NCBI GenBank assembly: GCA_017500845.1 | Contig: JAFVXY010000012.1 | Span: forward strand, 1-61,467 | DNA: 61,467 nucleotides | Origin: Clostridia bacterium | GTDB taxonomy: Bacteria; Bacillota; Clostridia; Christensenellales; Pumilibacteraceae | Direction: 5' to 3' | Part shown: one piece after another, positions 2 to 29,174 of the stretch | Layout of the letters: every line of letters starts with the position of its first letter | Numbering within the stretch: position 1 is the stretch's first letter | Notes under the pieces: model-generated | What the model was told of the DNA's origin: nothing | The model's input: only the letters and a program-made list of their open reading frames with translations | The model's database searches: none | Program-made: the position numbers and the translations under genes

Positions 2-310
2 GTGTGTGATGAGCACGAAGGTGAATATCACATTCCTTCTCACGTAATTGAATGCATGTTGTTCTGGGTCAAAGCAAAGACATATAAAAAAATACGTGAT
101 AACAATGCAGAACAGGATGCTAGAAAATTGTTTCTTGCGGTAGAGCAAAGTGTTAGAGCAAGATTGAAAAATATAGAAGATTTGGATGAAGCGACAGAGA
201 TTAACGGTATTAAACCGCTATTCTCTAACTGGAATGAGTATAATATTGTTCTTGAATTTTGGAATGATTTGCACGACTATTTAACAAGCAACTATGATTT
301 CGAAAGATAA
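2..310 (+). CDS. C-terminal part of an unrecognised protein (5' end outside window)
   Basis: The frame is already open at the left edge and ends at a TAA (308-310), so only the last ~102 residues are visible and the true start lies outside the window. The visible part is lysine/glutamate rich and probably helical, with no signal peptide, membrane segment or catalytic motif that I recognise. It ends 61 bp before the start of the phosphoribosyltransferase-like gene on the same strand and shares its AT-rich codon use (AAA, GAA, AAT), unlike the housekeeping genes further right. I infer that it belongs to the same transferred cassette, perhaps as a third component. It could equally be the end of an unrelated neighbour. 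Confidence 0.55.
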   Translation: MCDEHEGEYHIPSHVIECMLFWVKAKTYKKIRDNNAEQDARKLFLAVEQSVRARLKNIEDLDEATEINGIKPLFSNWNEYNIVLEFWNDLHDYLTSNYDFER

Positions 311-371
311 GTCAAAATTAATACGCAGTAAGCAAAGAAAAGGAAAAACTCAAATAGAGAAAGGAGATAAA

Positions 372-1595
372 GTGAACAGGGAACAAATAACCAAAGAAAT
401 TGCCAATATAATACAAAACTTTAGAAAAGATGAGTTGCCCATACAACTTGACAGCGAGCATGTTGAAAAATGGGTTTCTCAGTTTTCTCAAGGGACTCAG
501 GATATTATACTTTTTGAAACGCTACATGTGCTTGAGGAATGGTATTTTAGTGATTCAAAAATTGACGATATATTAGATAGCATATTGACATACATAACAA
601 AAAAATATGGATTTTCAAGTGAGTTTGAAATGTTGAAATCGGTCTCATTTATTCAAGTGCAGGAAACGGGTTTGAGTCAGCGAAAAATGCTTGAACGATT
701 GATTAACATGGTAAACGATCGATATGATTATCCTTTGAAAACATCTGTGGATGAAGAAACAAAACATTATGTTTATATTGATGATGGATTATATACCGGT
801 AGAAGAGCTCGAACAGATATTGAAGAGTGCTTATGGTTATTACCTAGTGGATCAACCTTAGATGTGTTTTATATAGTAGGAGCTACGCAAGGGGTGGAGT
901 ATGTAAAAAACAAATTAACCTCTATTATTGATGAACAAAACATTCAGTTCAAAATACATACTTATAAAAAGCTGTGCAACAACAAAAAAGTATCGAAAAC
1001 ATATGAGTATAATGGTGAACGCGTTGAAACATATGAAAAATACAAGAAGTGCTTGTGGCCGACCTCAAGAGCGTCAGGAATTCAAGAAATCGCTGATTAT
1101 TATTCTTCTTTGATGCAACTTGGAGATAATTATGAAAAGATTCCTTATAGAGCATATCCATGGGAGAATGATAACGGTATTTTTTCATCGGCACAAAATC
1201 GCGAAATTGTAGAAATTGAGTTTCTTGTAAAAGGAATAGAAATAATTCGCAGTTTATCTAAAGAGAGTAAGATGTATCCGTTAGGATACAATTTGTGGCC
1301 TTCGTTTTGGTTTGGTTCATTTTGTGCGTTTGATATGAACATTTCCAACGCTTGTCCCCTTGTGCTATGGTGGGGTAATTTGTTAAAGGAAGGTAATCCA
1401 TTAGATAATTGGTATCCGCTTTTGCCAAGACGGAGTAATGCTGAAAGTGACGAAGCGGAAGCTCTTGATTGGAATAGCGATGATTTTGGAATGGAGAAAG
1501 ATCAATACAACATGTGCCCTGATTGCTTCTGTTATTTTGGGCATGACCAAGATGGTGGAAATGGTTTCTGTATCGATTGTGCATGGAAGCATTAA
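372..1595 (+). CDS. Phosphoribosyltransferase-like protein with C-terminal zinc-ribbon-like motif (candidate conflict-system component)
   Basis: 407 aa from a GTG start at 372, chosen because AAGGAG (361-366) sits 5 nt upstream; an upstream in-frame ATG at 294 has no ribosome binding site. Residues ~133-144 read YVYIDDGLYTGR, with hydrophobic residues before Asp-Asp (137-138) and Thr-Gly (142-143). This matches the PRPP-binding loop of type I phosphoribosyltransferases. The very C-terminus carries CPDC (382-385) and CIDC (400-403), a zinc-ribbon-like pair. The N-terminal ~120 residues are helical and unassigned. PRTase-like domains of this type (I recall the name PRTase-CE) have been predicted in bacterial conflict systems; that link is from memory and needs a profile search. 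The next gene encodes a nuclease-like protein, which supports a defence role. No salvage enzyme partner lies nearby. Substrate and activity are unknown. Confidence 0.7.
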   Translation: MNREQITKEIANIIQNFRKDELPIQLDSEHVEKWVSQFSQGTQDIILFETLHVLEEWYFSDSKIDDILDSILTYITKKYGFSSEFEMLKSVSFIQVQETGLSQRKMLERLINMVNDRYDYPLKTSVDEETKHYVYIDDGLYTGRRARTDIEECLWLLPSGSTLDVFYIVGATQGVEYVKNKLTSIIDEQNIQFKIHTYKKLCNNKKVSKTYEYNGERVETYEKYKKCLWPTSRASGIQEIADYYSSLMQLGDNYEKIPYRAYPWENDNGIFSSAQNREIVEIEFLVKGIEIIRSLSKESKMYPLGYNLWPSFWFGSFCAFDMNISNACPLVLWWGNLLKEGNPLDNWYPLLPRRSNAESDEAEALDWNSDDFGMEKDQYNMCPDCFCYFGHDQDGGNGFCIDCAWKH

Positions 1596-1677
1596 ATGTT
1601 TATATGGGTTTGATGTAATAAATGTTAAATTTGTTTAATGAGTCTTGCTGATTTCTATACTATGGCGAAGGAGATTT

Positions 1678-3144
1678 ATGAAAATCATGAAGGATTTCAT
1701 TGCCGAAATAAGAAAAATAAGGACAGATGAGTTGATATTAGAGCTGTCCAAACTCTCTATTCAAATGTTTCAAAGCGAAACACGACATATGAAAAACTTA
1801 CCTATTCAAGTTAATCAATTTGGAATTTGGAAAAATAAAGAAGTGTTGTTAACTGCGTGGGACATTCTAAATGTTGAATTTTTGTCGATCAAAAATAGCA
1901 ATGATTATAGAGATTCGAAACAAAAGAGCTCAATCGGAGAACTTATAAATTTATATCGTGGATACGAAAATGCGCAAAAAGATTTGGAATACTTAAAAGA
2001 CGGATCTTTAAACGAAGTATTTCGGACCGTTTTAGGAATGACGGCAGAGCAGTTTCAGTATCAAAACTTGGATTATTTTTTCGAGAGATTTAATAGGAAC
2101 TACTATATTCTTGTAGCAGCTGATAAATTTGAGCATAGAGACAGTTTGGATGTTTCAGCTGCGTTGGAAAACGTATTTGGGTATTCGGTAGAAGATTATT
2201 TGTCTATTATGTTGATGGTGTATTGGCTTTGTTCTAAATGTCCAGAGCCATTGTCTGCGCCCGAGAGCGTTTACAAGAAAACAACTGCAACAGTTTTCAC
2301 AAAAGAGAATATAACAAATTTTGTAAAACACTATTCATGCTCTTATACTGATTTGAGAGGTTCTTCTTTAGGTAAACAACTTCTATATTCAAAGCCGTTC
2401 ATTAAAACCGATCGAAGTGGTAAATATATTGCATCAAGCATGTTAGCCGTGTTTATGCTGATTGGTAATGGATTGTATTGGGTAGTGCGAGATTATTATC
2501 AAAAGAAAGGAACACAAGAATTTCCCAATAAATTCGGATTGCTTTTTGAAGATTATATAAAAGACTTGGCATCGAAATACTGTAAATCAAATGAGTGGCA
2601 AGTGATAGAACAAGGAGTCGAGAAAGGCGCGGATTTTCTTTTTGATTTTGGTGATTTGAGATTGCTCGTTGAAGCGAAGTCTGCGCTATTAAAGCTTGAT
2701 GCGAAGCAGCAAGTGCCAAATCTTCATTCTGCAAATCAATTTTTCGAGAGAAACATAGAAGAATCGTACAAACAATTGAATAGAAGTTTTGAAGAATTTT
2801 CTAAAAAAGGTGATTTGCCAATTGCAAAGATTATTTTATTGTACGACGAATTTTCGAATACAGCCATCATTGAACATTCTTTATTTGATGTATTTCAAGA
2901 GGATAAAAAATTTTTTGTTATGACTATCCGTCAACTTGAAATACTACTGCATCTGCATAAACACAATTCAGATAAATTTGAGTCAGTTCTTCAAAAAATT
3001 ATTGATTCTATGAATTCATCCTCTTCAAAAATGAACATGGATGCTTTGTATAGCGAATTGGATATAAATGAAAATCCTCTTTTTGAAGGAGAAATGGATT
3101 ACTTCCAAAAGCAGATGCAACATTTTGAAATGAATCTAAAATAA
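1678..3144 (+). CDS. PD-(D/E)XK nuclease-like protein (candidate effector of the PRTase-like cassette)
   Basis: 488 aa from ATG 1678, chosen for AAGGAG at 1668-1673; an in-frame ATG at 1645 lacks a binding site. Residues ~290-340 resemble the restriction-endonuclease core: a helix around LLFEDYIKDL, then GADFLFDFGDLRLLVEAKS with Asp319, Asp326 and Glu332-Ala-Lys334, i.e. D...ExK, the signature of PD-(D/E)XK nucleases. Asn/Gln- and Lys-rich helices follow. The N-terminal ~280 residues have no motif I recognise. The gene starts 82 bp after the PRTase-like gene, same strand and same AT-rich composition, so the two are probably co-transcribed. I infer a nucleic-acid-cleaving effector. A non-catalytic DNA-binding relative is possible because the motif was judged by eye only. 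Confidence 0.65.
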   Translation: MKIMKDFIAEIRKIRTDELILELSKLSIQMFQSETRHMKNLPIQVNQFGIWKNKEVLLTAWDILNVEFLSIKNSNDYRDSKQKSSIGELINLYRGYENAQKDLEYLKDGSLNEVFRTVLGMTAEQFQYQNLDYFFERFNRNYYILVAADKFEHRDSLDVSAALENVFGYSVEDYLSIMLMVYWLCSKCPEPLSAPESVYKKTTATVFTKENITNFVKHYSCSYTDLRGSSLGKQLLYSKPFIKTDRSGKYIASSMLAVFMLIGNGLYWVVRDYYQKKGTQEFPNKFGLLFEDYIKDLASKYCKSNEWQVIEQGVEKGADFLFDFGDLRLLVEAKSALLKLDAKQQVPNLHSANQFFERNIEESYKQLNRSFEEFSKKGDLPIAKIILLYDEFSNTAIIEHSLFDVFQEDKKFFVMTIRQLEILLHLHKHNSDKFESVLQKIIDSMNSSSSKMNMDALYSELDINENPLFEGEMDYFQKQMQHFEMNLK

Positions 3145-3350: not shown

Positions 3351-3382
3351 AAAAATCGGGAATCTTACGACTCCCGATTTTT
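3351..3382. terminator. Bidirectional intrinsic terminator
   Basis: AAAAATCGGGA (3351-3361) pairs perfectly with TCCCGATTTTT (3372-3382), an 11-bp stem with a 10-nt loop and T-runs on both strands. It can end the plus-strand cassette and the minus-strand GNAT-GtrA pair. Confidence 0.75.
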
Positions 3383-3491: not shown

Positions 3492-3932
3492 TTAGTCTAT
3501 GGTGGGCTTGTCGCCGTTGGGTGTTTGACTTACTGCGGAGTCGCACGAGCCGCGGTACACGACGAAGCGAGTGTACAAGAACTCAAGCACGAAGTTGGCA
3601 AGCATGGTAACAGCCTCTACGATAAACCCATTGATACCGCTTTCTTCGGCAAGGGCACCGAGAATTGTGGATACGGGTGTAAACACGGCGTAAAAGATCA
3701 GAACAAGCAGCATTGCCAGCTTGATATTGTTTGCCGACCTAAATGTGTACTTGCGATTGATGGTAAAGTTCCAAAGCACCGAGGCAAGCAGGCTGATAAG
3801 GTAGCTAACCCAATAATTGAGGCTAAGTAGCTCGTAAAGCAGGGTGAACAGTCCTATTTGAATAATGCCTGCGCTGATAGAGATAAGGGTAAATTTTACC
3901 GCGCGAAGCCATTCTTTTTTAACCCCTGCCAT
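3492..3932 (-). CDS. GtrA-like small membrane protein
   Basis: 146 aa with four hydrophobic helices, typical in length for the GtrA family. These proteins are thought to flip or help transfer polyprenyl-phosphate-linked sugars across the membrane during surface polysaccharide decoration. Matching features are the opening VKFTLISISAGIIQIGLF, the YWVSYLISLLASVLWNFTINRKYTF segment with its conserved N-x-x-[YF]-x-F pattern, and a basic end. The start at 3932 is chosen because it lies 1 nt after the stop of the upstream GNAT-like gene; reading further upstream only overlaps that gene. The short C-terminal tail is polar. No glycosyltransferase lies in view, so the sugar substrate cannot be guessed. 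Confidence 0.75.
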   Translation of the reverse strand: MAGVKKEWLRAVKFTLISISAGIIQIGLFTLLYELLSLNYWVSYLISLLASVLWNFTINRKYTFRSANNIKLAMLLVLIFYAVFTPVSTILGALAEESGINGFIVEAVTMLANFVLEFLYTRFVVYRGSCDSAVSQTPNGDKPTID

Positions 3933-8309: not shown

Positions 8310-9560
8310 TCAGATTTCAAAACAATTGTCGTTAAGTAAAAAATCGAATAGGCTCAGAATCAAAATACCGTCTTCGTTATAGTACGATTTTATTATATCT
8401 TTAACTATAATAATTTTTTTAAAGGAATCGCCGATTCTTGTTAGAGAATTTTGCTCTTGTAGCATTTTTTCTTTATCGGGGACAGCTAATGCCGATTGAA
8501 TATAATAACGTCTGTCAGCCTTGTTGCAAACAAAATCTACTTCTGCTTGCACTCTAACAGATTTTCCGCTTTCGCTTTTGCTGTATTCTACAACGCCTAC
8601 GTCAACGTTAAAGCCCCTAATTTTTAGTTCGTTATAGATAATATTTTCCATAATATGGGTTTCTTCAATTTGACGAAAGTTGAGTCGCGCATTTCTTAGC
8701 CCTATATCGGTAAAGTAATACTTAGACGGCGTATTGATATACTTTTTGCCCCTAATATCATATCGTTTGGACTGTGATATTAAATATGCATCAACCAAAT
8801 GCTCTAAATAATTGTTAAGCGTATCAGGGTGAATAGAAACTTGCTTCACGCTCTTAAAGGTATTAGATAATTTTTTCGGGTTAGTGAGCGAACCAATCGA
8901 AGAAGAAAGAATGTCTAAAAGCTCGGCAAGCTCAGCATCGTTGCGGACTTTGTGTCGCTCCTTGATGTCCGTCAGATAGGTTTCGGCAAAAATATTTTTC
9001 AGATAAGCCACCTTATCCTCATCGGTTTTATATTCCAAAGCTTTGGGAAGCCCTCCATAAATACAATATTGTTTCCACGCATCCTCTTTGGTGCCACCGT
9101 ACACCGAATAGAACTCCTTAAATGAAAGAGGACTAATGTGAACTTCATCGCCTCTGCCACGGAATTCGGTAATTATATCCTTGGATAAAAATTTAGCGTT
9201 ACTGCCCGTAACGTAGGTGTCAGTATTTTTAATATGCAAAAAACTATTCAAAACGTCTTCAAACTCGGCTACAAACTGAACTTCATCGAGAAGAATATAG
9301 TACTGCTTGCCATCAACGACTTGTGAATGAACGTAATCGCATAACGCATCGGGATCTCGATATTTTTTGTTTTTCCTATCGTCCAAGGCAAGCGTTATTA
9401 TATGATTATCGTCAACGCCTTGCTTTTTTAAATAATTGTAAAAAAGCTCAAACAGTAGGTAAGATTTACCGCAACGGCGAATTCCGGTTATTACCTTTAC
9501 CAAACCGTTGTGCATTCTATCTATTAGTTTTTGTAAATAAACGTCTCTTTTGATTTCCAT
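8310..9560 (-). CDS. AAA ATPase with DUF4143-type C-terminus
   Basis: 416 aa from ATG 9560, preceded by TTAGGTG on the minus strand. The N-terminal AAA domain shows the Walker A GIRRCGKSYLL (about residues 27-37), Walker B YYILLDEVQ, and the sensor-like VTGSNAKFLS followed by the family's arginine RGRG. The C-terminal half has KYYFTDIGLRNARL, then VQAEVDFVCNKADRRYYIQSAL, an ExDF...Q motif resembling the degenerate nuclease-like domain of DUF4143 proteins. Such ATPases are abundant, often AT-rich and mobile, and their function is unsettled. This copy stands alone, is more AT-rich than its neighbours and is bracketed by long direct repeats (8127-8257 and 9741-9875), which suggests insertion as a cassette. 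Confidence 0.8.
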   Translation of the reverse strand: MEIKRDVYLQKLIDRMHNGLVKVITGIRRCGKSYLLFELFYNYLKKQGVDDNHIITLALDDRKNKKYRDPDALCDYVHSQVVDGKQYYILLDEVQFVAEFEDVLNSFLHIKNTDTYVTGSNAKFLSKDIITEFRGRGDEVHISPLSFKEFYSVYGGTKEDAWKQYCIYGGLPKALEYKTDEDKVAYLKNIFAETYLTDIKERHKVRNDAELAELLDILSSSIGSLTNPKKLSNTFKSVKQVSIHPDTLNNYLEHLVDAYLISQSKRYDIRGKKYINTPSKYYFTDIGLRNARLNFRQIEETHIMENIIYNELKIRGFNVDVGVVEYSKSESGKSVRVQAEVDFVCNKADRRYYIQSALAVPDKEKMLQEQNSLTRIGDSFKKIIIVKDIIKSYYNEDGILILSLFDFLLNDNCFEI

Positions 9561-9740
9561 GATGCACCTAATAAGATTTTTTTGCGTGTATATGCAAAAA
9601 TTTTCAGTACTATTGTAGCTCGTTTGCCCAATAAAGTCAATATAAATGACGTGCCAATAAGAAAAAACTTGACGAATATGCAAAAATTTTCAATAAATTG
9701 CAAGGTCAAGCTTTGCTTGTTGCAGCGCGGAATCTGTTTA

Positions 9741-24832: not shown

Positions 24833-25108
24833 GTCATTGCGAGCATAGCGAAGCAATCTCAAAATCCCAAGAGAGTGCTAGGGTGGTCAAAAGTGGCCTT
24901 TGCTTACAAAAATTTACAATAATAGCCTTGACAACATGATAATTGTTAGGTAAAATATGCTAAATGAGCCTGTACAGTAATGACTGCACCGGAAATATAA
25001 TAAAGCGATAACTAAATAAAAAATTTCACAAAAAATTTTTAAAAGCAAGGAAACTTTTTTGCAAAAAAACTGATATATATAGTGACAAACAAAAATGGAG
25101 GTATCATT
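24833..25108 (+). repeat. Duplicated control region of the lipoprotein family, copy 1
   Basis: From GTCATTGCGAGC to the start codon, ~276 bp match 61162-61437 with about a dozen substitutions over the first ~265 bp. It contains a full promoter, a ~145-nt leader and the ribosome binding site GGAGG (25097-25101). The last ~45 bp of the leader recur a third time at 26089-26133. Confidence 0.85.
24928..24956 (+). promoter_or_regulatory. Promoter of lipoprotein gene 1
   Basis: TTGACA (24928-24933), 17-bp spacer, TAAAAT (24951-24956); identical boxes and spacing in the copy at 61257-61285. The leader to the GTG is about 145 nt, long enough to carry regulation. Confidence 0.7.
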
Positions 25109-26020
25109 GTGAAAAAGATAGTAAGTTTTATTCTTGTTGCGTTATTATTGTTTACACTTGTAGGGTGTAACCAAAACGAGCAGATGGACGAGATGGAGAA
25201 AAAAATAGCGCAGTTAGAGCAAGCGCTTCAAAATCAAGCTGACGTCAATGACGAGTTGAGCGCAGAATTACAGGAGCAAAAGTCCGCCAATGAGTGGCTT
25301 GGTCAGCTTATATTGACCCAACAGGGTTTGATTGATAAGCAGCAGGAAACTATTGATGATCAGCGAGCGGAAATAGAGAGTATGAAAGGAGCAATAGACA
25401 ATATTTCCGGTAAACCGATACAATTTACGGAATCAGCACCTGTTTATGACGAGAGAGAAAACGACAAAACTATATGTTATTTTGGCAATCTACCGACCTT
25501 TTCGTGGGAAGAACCGTACGAAGATTTTTTGAATTATTATCAAAGCACATACGATAGCAATACAAATGGCAGACTGTTTATTTTGAGCCCCGAAAATGAT
25601 TCAAATGAGACATTACAGGACTTTTTTATTAAGACACAAAGCGAAGAGATGCCTTACGAAAAACCGATGACAGTTGAATACGTGAATATTTTTGACGTTA
25701 CTCTTGGGTTTTTTAATCGTTATAGTGGTGAGGGAGAAGGAAATTTTGCACCAAGTGTAGAAATAGCCTTTTATGCACCTGCGGTATCTAACGAGGTGGC
25801 GGAGCAGTTTGATAGGACAAAGGTATTTCTTAAATTTGGCAATAACGCCACAAAGGGGTGGAACGAGGGCAATTATTATTTTAATATTTATATGCCCATT
25901 GAGGGCGAGGGCGTAACAAGCAACGTATGCATAGGAACCTGCCATTATGATGTGTGCGCAAATCTTTCTGTAGAATGGTTTGAAAGATTTATTTACAGAA
26001 ATTTGTTTTTGGGAGATTAA
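25109..26020 (+). CDS. Coiled-coil lipoprotein 1
   Basis: 303 aa from GTG 25109, chosen for GGAGG 7 nt upstream. Residues 1-20 are a lipoprotein signal peptide ending in the lipobox LVGC (Cys20, lipidation site). Residues ~24-115 form a long coiled coil rich in Gln, Glu and Asp (QMDEMEKKIAQLEQALQNQ and similar). The C-terminal ~190 residues form a globular domain I do not recognise, ending CIGTCHYDVCANLSVEWFERF and LFLGD. The protein should be anchored to the outer face of the membrane with a stalk. It is paralogous to the next gene and to the gene starting at 61438. Function unknown. Confidence 0.8.
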   Translation: MKKIVSFILVALLLFTLVGCNQNEQMDEMEKKIAQLEQALQNQADVNDELSAELQEQKSANEWLGQLILTQQGLIDKQQETIDDQRAEIESMKGAIDNISGKPIQFTESAPVYDERENDKTICYFGNLPTFSWEEPYEDFLNYYQSTYDSNTNGRLFILSPENDSNETLQDFFIKTQSEEMPYEKPMTVEYVNIFDVTLGFFNRYSGEGEGNFAPSVEIAFYAPAVSNEVAEQFDRTKVFLKFGNNATKGWNEGNYYFNIYMPIEGEGVTSNVCIGTCHYDVCANLSVEWFERFIYRNLFLGD

Positions 26021-26133
26021 ACACGCTTTTTGTAGGGCGGCAATGAGCGCAAAAAGTTTTTAAAAATTTTACAGAAAACAAAAGTATGATAAAACTGATA
26101 TATATAGTGACAAACAAAAATGGAGGTATCATT

Positions 26134-27072
26134 GTGAAAAAGATAATAAGTTTTATTCTTGTTGCGTTATTATTGTTTACACCTGTAGGGTGTAACCAAA
26201 ACGAGCAGATGGACGAGATGGAGCAAAGAATTGCTCAGTTGGAGAAAGCGCTTCAAAATCAAGCAGATGTCAATGACGAGTTGAGCGCAGACTTGGAGGA
26301 ACAAAAGTCCGCCAATGAATGGCTTGGTCAGCTTATTCTTACCCAGCAAGGCTTGCTTGACGAACAAAAGCAAGCCATTGATAGTCAGCAGGGGGTGCTT
26401 GACGAGCAAAAGGAAGTTATTGACAGTCAGCAGAAACAATTAGACCTTGCCGAAAAAGCAATAGACAATCTTTTGGGTAAGCCGATAGAATTTACTGCTC
26501 AGACGCCTATTTATGATTATAATTTGTTTGATGATTATGAGCTTATAAAGTATTTTGAGTTATATCCTTCAGGCGACAAGAGTAACTTTGAAAGCTTTAT
26601 GGATTATTACAATACGGAATTTAGAGAAATTTTTGATGAAAAACATTTTTTGTTAAACGCCTCGGAAGACGAGGTTGCAGTTAATGGCGGGCAAACTTAT
26701 GGTGTATCTGCGCAAAATATTGATGGAGAATATGTAAATCCTATAATTTTTGACAATCGATTCGTATGGGACGAGGCGATAAAAAACTATATGTATAAAA
26801 AAGACGAAGAAGAGAGTGATATTGGGCGTTTATCTACAGTTCATTTAACTATGTATCTTGCGCCGTTGCCGGCAGACTATAATTCATGGCACTCAAAAGA
26901 TTGTATTCGTTTAGAATTTGGTGAACTGCAAAAAGAAGGTTATGCCGAGATGTATTTTAATATTTATGTAGGTTCAAGGTGTATAGGCACTTGCTATTAT
27001 AGTGCAAATGCAACGCTTACTTATAGATGGTTTGAAAGATATTTTAGAGAAAACATGTTTTTAGGAGAATAG
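26134..27072 (+). CDS. Coiled-coil lipoprotein 2
   Basis: 312 aa from GTG 26134, same ribosome binding site and leader end as copy 1. Signal peptide with lipobox PVGC (Cys20). The coiled coil is nearly identical to copy 1 up to QLILTQQGL, then is lengthened by a 14-residue repeat, LDEQK-x-x-IDSQQ, present about twice (two heptads each). The C-terminal domain is diverged but keeps CIGTCYYSANATLTYRWFERYF and MFLGE at the end. The stalk is thus conserved while the exposed domain varies, as expected for a surface protein family under diversifying selection. Function unknown. Confidence 0.8.
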   Translation: MKKIISFILVALLLFTPVGCNQNEQMDEMEQRIAQLEKALQNQADVNDELSADLEEQKSANEWLGQLILTQQGLLDEQKQAIDSQQGVLDEQKEVIDSQQKQLDLAEKAIDNLLGKPIEFTAQTPIYDYNLFDDYELIKYFELYPSGDKSNFESFMDYYNTEFREIFDEKHFLLNASEDEVAVNGGQTYGVSAQNIDGEYVNPIIFDNRFVWDEAIKNYMYKKDEEESDIGRLSTVHLTMYLAPLPADYNSWHSKDCIRLEFGELQKEGYAEMYFNIYVGSRCIGTCYYSANATLTYRWFERYFRENMFLGE

Positions 27073-29034: not shown

Positions 29035-29053
29035 AACACTACAATTTAATATC

Positions 29054-29140
29054 TAACGGGAGCTTGTATTACAGGCTGAGAGGAAGGAGTTGACCTTCGA
29101 CCGAGAACCTGATTTGGATAATGCCAACGTAGGGACGCCT
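29054..29140 (+). promoter_or_regulatory. TPP riboswitch (THI element)
   Basis: Conserved THI-box blocks in order: ACGGGAGC, CTGAGAGG (29076-29083), GAACCTGAT (29105-29113) and GGATAATGCCAACGTAGGGA (29116-29135). These are the pyrimidine- and pyrophosphate-sensing helices of the TPP aptamer. Followed by an intrinsic terminator at 29175-29212, so TPP binding probably stops transcription before thiS. Confidence 0.95.
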
Positions 29141-29174
29141 TGTAAAATATGAGGAATATCTAAGCAATTAAGCA

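What the first reader, a model, noticed from the sequence alone, without database searches (positions are those of the whole stretch)
372..3144. AT-rich two-gene cassette joining a PRTase-like protein to a PD-(D/E)XK nuclease-like protein
Seen: a PRPP-loop motif (YVYIDDGLYTGR) with a C-terminal CxxC/CxxC pair, followed 82 bp later by a protein with GADFLFDFGDLRLLVEAKS. Both are much more AT-rich than the housekeeping genes. Known: PRTase-like domains have been predicted in bacterial conflict systems, and PD-(D/E)XK domains are common defence effectors. Inference: the PRTase-like protein may sense or modify a nucleotide signal, or ribosylate a target, that licenses the nuclease. I know of no characterised system with exactly these two parts.
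Basis: partly seen in the sequence, partly recalled or inferred. Interest (0 to 1): 0.8.

Follow-up and report, generated by a model that had tools for sequence, protein, structure and literature searches.

The report
NADAR-less DS-32-type defence cassette
An unnamed bacterium carries what looks like an anti-virus gene cassette: a phosphoribosyltransferase-like protein of a known defence family that lacks its usual partner enzyme and instead sits between a probable signal-making enzyme and a probable nucleic-acid-cutting enzyme.

Summary
Both genes are real. 372-1595 encodes a PRTase-CE protein (PF24390, E 4.8e-37) close to NCBI's DS32_1 anti-phage family (237 bits, cut-off 250), plus a CxxC/CxxC tail. 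1678-3144 encodes a distant GapS1 relative (E 3.2e-11, 43 bits against a cut-off of 320) with PD-(D/E)XK residues in place.

The surprise is the missing partner. In 52 of 60 related loci NADAR directly follows the PRTase; NCBI names such pairs DS32_1/DS32_2. The window and its five nearest relatives, all five Bacillota, show none; the window and the four relatives put in the tree form one clade (100/99). The nearest relative has a Shedu PD-(D/E)XK gene just upstream.

Against: the exact pair was found nowhere else, so the nuclease may be a mere neighbour. Best reading, only just ahead of that: a CBASS-like variant of DS-32; mechanism inferred.

The parts
2..310 (+). C-terminal 102 aa of a probable CD-NTase (oligonucleotide cyclase); the rest lies beyond the contig start
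   Evidence: Four PADLOC cyclase models match in their C-terminal parts, E 7.5e-7 to 5.5e-4; the best model has one match in the genome, here. No Pfam, NCBIfam or PDB match.
360..374 (+). ribosome-binding site AAAGGAG and GTG start of the PRTase gene
   Evidence: Read from the sequence; an ATG start at 294 in the same frame is possible but has no such site.
372..1595 (+). PRTase-CE protein of the DS32_1 kind, 407 aa
   Evidence: PF24390 E 4.8e-37 over residues 31-353; NF053875 DS32_1 237.4 bits, cut-off 250, whole model covered; D137, D138 and G143 invariant in 48 relatives.
1437..1592 (+). C-terminal tail with two CxxC pairs, a probable zinc-binding tail
   Evidence: Shared with the nearest relative L041 and a PIN_12 protein, L007.
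1678..3144 (+). PD-(D/E)XK nuclease-like protein, distant relative of GapS1, 488 aa
   Evidence: NF047931 E 3.2e-11, 42.8 bits, cut-off 320; E291, E332, K334 and Q366 invariant in five GapS1-like proteins; profile matches Can2 at E 0.005.

Best explanation
A branch of the DS-32 phage-defence family in which the PRTase-CE effector has no NADAR partner and is carried in a CBASS-like cassette of at least three genes. On infection the upstream CD-NTase would make a cyclic oligonucleotide that switches on the effectors: the PRTase-CE, which would use PRPP to put a (phospho)ribosyl group on a base or nucleotide and so stop growth or phage replication, and the PD-(D/E)XK protein, which would cut nucleic acid. 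Shown: the families, the motif residues, the gene order and direction, and the lack of NADAR. Inferred: that the cut gene is a working CD-NTase, its product, co-expression, PRPP use, the targets and the outcome.
For: Three co-directional genes of like low G+C with gaps of 61 and 82 bp. Cyclase models match the upstream fragment. PRTase-CE of the DS32_1 kind with its motif kept; PD-(D/E)XK residues kept. NADAR absent beside the PRTase and in the genome as held, in a clade that lacks it. A more distant PRTase-CE (L037) sits with a CARF6 protein and an ORC-CDC6-like ATPase, so PRTase-CE does occur next to a protein family of messenger-sensing type. PRTase-CE/NADAR is named anti-phage by NCBI.
Against: The trio was seen once. 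None of the five nearest relatives showed a cyclase beside the PRTase as far as their neighbours were read or scanned (the PADLOC tally shows only 25 of 192 families). The cyclase is a 102-aa fragment without its catalytic half. No known messenger sensor domain was matched in either effector candidate. Promoter-like and terminator-like sites in the first 3.7 kb are no more than chance (12 against 13.3 expected, 3 against 2.0), so co-expression is not shown.
Confidence: 0.4

Rival explanations
1. A defence island of independent units. A NADAR-less DS-32-type PRTase works alone, next to a GapS1-like nuclease that works alone and the end of a separate CBASS or other cyclase system.
For: The pair was found nowhere else. 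Most of the seven other GapS1-like hits had no constant partner in the stretches read (two of the seven not read). Three of the five nearest PRTase relatives (L042, L043, L045) had no recognisable defence partner by eye. The Shedu gene beside L041 is a family that I recall as a single-gene system.
Against: Same strand, like G+C, short gaps, good ribosome-binding sites. Two of six members of the branch (window, L041) have a PD-(D/E)XK gene directly beside the PRTase, from different families.
Confidence: 0.38
2. One reading: the PRTase makes or senses a nucleotide-type signal, or ribosylates a target, and this licenses the PD-(D/E)XK nuclease; the upstream fragment is unrelated.
For: Adjacent co-directional genes; Shedu PD-(D/E)XK beside the nearest relative; NADAR, the usual partner, is missing, so something may take its place.
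Against: No conserved pairing with this nuclease family. The cyclase-like fragment is a more direct signal source.
Confidence: 0.14
3. Not defence: a salvage-type PRTase and a housekeeping or decayed nuclease on an AT-rich remnant.
For: No experiment on this lineage. In 396 genomes of the order the only PRTase-domain match was the window's own, so no conserved role in the group can be argued either way.
Against: Sporadic distribution, intact frames, motif residues kept, nearest named families anti-phage.
Confidence: 0.05

Closest known systems
DS-32 (NCBIfam NF053875 DS32_1 PRTase-like protein + NF053876 DS32_2 NADAR protein)
   Same: The PRTase-CE protein matches the whole DS32_1 model at 237 of the 250 bits required; its nearest relative L041 passes at 259.
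   Different: No NADAR beside it or in the genome as held; extra CxxC/CxxC tail; cyclase-like and nuclease-like neighbours instead.
GapS1 (NCBIfam NF047931)
   Same: PD-(D/E)XK-type residues and overall alignment with the GapS1 model over residues 90-367.
   Different: 43 bits against a cut-off of 320: a distant relative, not a member.
CBASS
   Same: A cyclase-like gene directly upstream of two candidate effectors.
   Different: The catalytic half of the cyclase is not in the assembly, and no known CBASS effector or messenger sensor was matched.
CARF6 / ORC-CDC6-like / PRTase-CE gene set (L037; L038 by eye)
   Same: Contains a PRTase-CE protein in a probable messenger-sensing setting.
   Different: A different PRTase-CE branch that the DS32-type profile does not pick up; no CARF or ORC-like gene in the window cassette.
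Shedu (SduA)
   Same: A full-length SduA gene lies directly upstream of the nearest relative's PRTase (L041), also a PD-(D/E)XK family.
   Different: The window's nuclease is GapS1-like and downstream.

Membership tests
DS-32 | PRTase-like protein above the DS32_1 cut-off (250 bits) | tested here: not met
   237.4 bits, whole model covered, E 2.2e-70. Narrow miss; L041 of the same clade scores 259.
DS-32 | NADAR (DS32_2) gene beside it | tested here: not met
   None in the first 8 kb of the window at any credible score, none in the genome at E <= 1 (75% complete). Control 49 of 49.
PRTase-CE (PF24390) | Score above the gathering cut-off (27 bits) | tested here: met
   128.6 bits, full model 1-253.
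PRTase-CE (PF24390) | PRPP-loop-like acidic motif | tested here: met
   D137, D138 and G143 invariant in 48 relatives; the motif region aligns with PyrR at E 0.14, weak.
GapS1 | Score above the NF047931 cut-off (320 bits) | tested here: not met
   42.8 bits.
PD-(D/E)XK nuclease superfamily | Acidic residues and E-x-K of the active site | tested here: met
   E291, E332, K334, Q366 invariant; position 319 is D in four and E in one of five. Nuclease activity not tested.
PD-(D/E)XK nuclease superfamily | Fold | tested here: inconclusive
CBASS | CD-NTase with its catalytic motif | tested here: inconclusive
   C-terminal part only, E 7.5e-7; the catalytic part is not in the assembly.
CBASS | Effector activated by the CD-NTase product | not testable with these tools
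   Needs biochemistry.
DS-32 and CBASS | Protection against phage | not testable with these tools
   Needs plaque assays.

The most novel reading that the evidence does not exclude
A new CBASS-like type whose effector is a phosphoribosyltransferase: a cyclic oligonucleotide switches on a DS-32-type PRTase that marks nucleic acid or nucleotides with (phospho)ribose, and a partner PD-(D/E)XK nuclease acts on the marked molecules in place of the NADAR glycosidase that would remove such marks in other lineages.
Probability: 0.12. Interest if true: 0.85.

Novelty: new variant of a known kind. Interest (0 to 1): 0.5.

Why it matters
I found no paper in the held library that gives the substrate of the DS-32 PRTase. 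A branch that does without NADAR asks directly whether NADAR is an antitoxin (then the PRTase must be held off another way, such as by a messenger) or a catalytic partner (then something must replace it). If the cyclase link holds, phosphoribosyl transfer would be a new kind of output for messenger-based immunity.

Tried and rejected
Scans that gave nothing useful: P0001 alone in genome contigs (10 stretches matched a pattern, none a relative), in viral contigs and in phage records; P0002 in viral contigs and plasmids; P0003 in plasmids, phages and viral contigs. The tail motif: only the window itself in 338 phylum genomes, nothing in viral contigs.

Weak PRTase-CE hits: 47 of 398 phylum genomes matched at E <= 0.001 but only 3 (one of them the window's own) passed the cut-off; the other 44 were not used and not checked one by one. 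PDB hits of P0002 alone were mostly designed proteins and were set aside as likely composition matches. The best PDB hit of the PRTase profile was an EF-hand protein in the N-terminal region (E 0.0022), better than the PyrR hits; I set it aside because it does not touch the motif.

Rows left out of the 48-row tree: L045 (reading frame broken in two), L070, L080, L084, L085, L091, L093-L095, L097 and the three plasmid proteins. L085 (Actinomycetota) also has no NADAR and was therefore not tested as a second loss. L080 and L084 are cut or broken and cannot be judged.

Limits of the negative results. The search for GapS1-like genes beside PRTases used the single window protein and would miss very distant ones; the PRTase profile used beside GapS1-like genes was built from DS32-type proteins and does not see L037-type PRTase-CE. 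GapS1-like loci L104 and L105 were searched only in the short stretch fetched. Of 39 loci with a co-directional upstream ORF I scanned the upstream gene of 25, leaving out mostly short ORFs, plus a second L041 gene and the window fragment (27 in all); only the 25 commonest of 192 PADLOC families and of 34 Pfam families were shown. An alignment of GapS1-like proteins was too diverse to scan with.

Papers: PMC13092281 (DefensePredictor): figure legends read and passages seen; its main text names PRTase and NADAR domains but not DS-32, so tying NCBI's DS32 names to it is inference. PMC11125620 and PMC9503650: passages. PMC10853773: term search without a hit. All other papers: listings only. Recalled, from no call: what CBASS and SAVED are, that Shedu is a single-gene system, the usual reading of the PRPP-loop motif, and the PD-(D/E)XK motif order.

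Full report
What is there. The window is bases 1-61467 of a contig of an unnamed 1.28-Mb genome, 75% complete. Its first 3.1 kb hold three genes in one direction: 2-310 (open at the contig start), 372-1595 and 1678-3144. They are 33-35% G+C, while the window after base 3500 averages 47.8% and never falls below 37.4% over 2.7 kb. The gaps are 61 and 82 bp. Both complete genes have a good ribosome-binding site (read). No terminator-like site on the + strand lies in the gaps, but promoter-like and terminator-like sites are at chance level in this stretch (12 against 13.3 expected, 3 against 2.0), so an operon is likely but not shown.

The middle gene. It holds a full PRTase-CE domain (PF24390, E 4.8e-37) and covers the whole NCBIfam model DS32_1, 'phosphoribosyltransferase-like anti-phage protein', at 237.4 bits, 12.6 short of the cut-off. 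In an alignment of 48 relatives, D137, D138 and G143 of the PRPP-loop-like motif are invariant. All 48 match PRTase-CE. The profile aligns the motif with PyrR, a known PRTase, only weakly (E 0.14). After the domain the window protein has a tail with two CxxC pairs, which the three plasmid relatives lack. Among the ORFs of 112 loci searched by pattern, the tail is on the window protein, on the nearest relative L041, and on a PIN_12 protein from another genome of the order (L007/L039). A PIN-like protein of a Priestia plasmid matches it weakly (E 3e-3). It looks like a portable zinc-binding tail of effector proteins; that is inference from few cases.

The usual partner is missing. I collected 60 relatives: 45 loci in genome contigs, 12 in viral contigs and 3 on plasmids. 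A NADAR gene follows directly in 52 of 60: 37 of 45, 12 of 12 and 3 of 3 (L092-L097 look like near-copies of one another). The eight without are the five closest to the window (L041-L045, all Bacillota by record title), L080 and L084 (cut or broken, cannot be judged) and L085 (Actinomycetota, a real exception). NCBI calls the NADAR of the Klebsiella pair DS32_2. In E. coli, 62 of 5,426 genomes match part of a related pair; the ten rows shown are annotated as a PRTase-like protein with a NADAR protein. As a control, the first 228 bp after the PRTase stop gave NADAR in 49 of 49 loci that have it (all but the plasmids), and in none of L041-L045 or the window. No NADAR was found in the window's genome, with the caveat of 75% completeness. 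On a tree of 48 rows the window and L041-L044 form one clade, support 100/99, with a single change of state.

The downstream gene. It is a distant relative of GapS1 (E 3.2e-11, 43 bits, cut-off 320). Across five GapS1-like proteins E291, E332, K334 and Q366 are invariant and position 319 is D in four and E in one, the pattern of a PD-(D/E)XK site. The only PDB sequence matched by their profile is Can2, E 0.005, over the same region. No other PRTase locus shows such a gene: a search of the ORFs of 97 loci found only the window's. In 61 relatives of the window's genome the nuclease was found only in the window's own. GapS1-family hits in 398 phylum genomes number 8 with the window's own; none of the other seven shows a DS32-type PRTase in the stretch held, five of them with wider surroundings read. 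One (L106) follows a PIN_12 gene.

The upstream gene. The 102 aa that are left match the C-terminal parts of four PADLOC cyclase models, E 7.5e-7 to 5.5e-4. The best model has one match in the genome, here, at E 6e-6; the same search rang in 2 of 14 control genomes, both archaea, so the domain is not unique to cyclases. Pfam, NCBIfam, PDB, plasmid, phage and viral-contig searches did not recognise the fragment. I rate a CD-NTase as likely (about 0.8), not proved.

Neighbours elsewhere. L041, the nearest relative (43% identity in the best segment; with tail), has a full-length Shedu gene upstream (SduA 360 bits; SduA_C E 6.6e-13) that ends about 11 to 20 bp before the PRTase, depending on its start codon, and only 228 bp of sequence after the PRTase. 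By eye, L042 sits among phage tail genes, L043 beside a relaxase-like gene on the other strand, and L044 follows an AlbA-type gene. Of 26 upstream genes and the window fragment scanned, five matched HsdM-type methylases and four SNF2/DEAD-type helicases. Of four long NADAR ORFs scanned, two carry DUF1156, one a type I specificity domain above cut-off, and one a specificity match below it. So PRTase/NADAR pairs are often built into DNA modification systems. A more distant PRTase-CE (L037) sits with an ORC-CDC6-like ATPase and a CARF6 protein; L038 has the same order by eye.

How it most likely works. NADAR enzymes remove ADP-ribose from guanine in DNA and are antitoxins to DarT1 (passages of PMC11125620). 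By analogy the DS-32 PRTase would add a ribosyl group that NADAR takes off; this is inference. A PRTase without NADAR must be held inactive in another way, or act on something that needs no reversal. A cyclase directly upstream would offer a switch, and the nuclease a second effector. I favour this reading (0.40), barely ahead of an island of independent genes (0.38), because the trio has been seen once.

Novelty. The parts are of known kinds. A NADAR-less DS-32 branch, with a shared tail and nuclease neighbours, is a new variant as far as my ten paper searches show. I could not see supplementary files, most subscription papers or bioRxiv.

Noticed in passing
L051, L053, L059, L086; upstream genes in alignment A5: PRTase-CE/NADAR pairs are built into type I restriction-modification operons and DUF1156/DUF499/helicase systems, with NADAR fused to methylase or specificity proteins.
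   Followed up: partly
L037 6101-10029; L038 3620-7438: PRTase-CE with an ORC-CDC6-like ATPase and a CARF6 protein, beside DNA methylase-like genes (L038 by eye).
   Followed up: partly
L007/L039, L115: PIN_12 or PIN-like proteins carry the same CxxC/CxxC tail as the window's PRTase.
   Followed up: partly
window 3351-3382: A 14-pair hairpin, terminator-like on the - strand, just after the AT-rich cassette; number of such sites is at chance level.
   Followed up: no
window 25082-27072: Two tandem, similar AT-rich ORFs that look like lipoproteins with a coiled-coil stretch (by eye).
   Followed up: no
window 8310-9683 (-): ORF that looks like an ATP-binding protein of the AAA/DUF4143 kind in an AT-rich stretch (by eye).
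   Followed up: no
window 29046-29152: TPP riboswitch, 59.9 bits.
   Followed up: no
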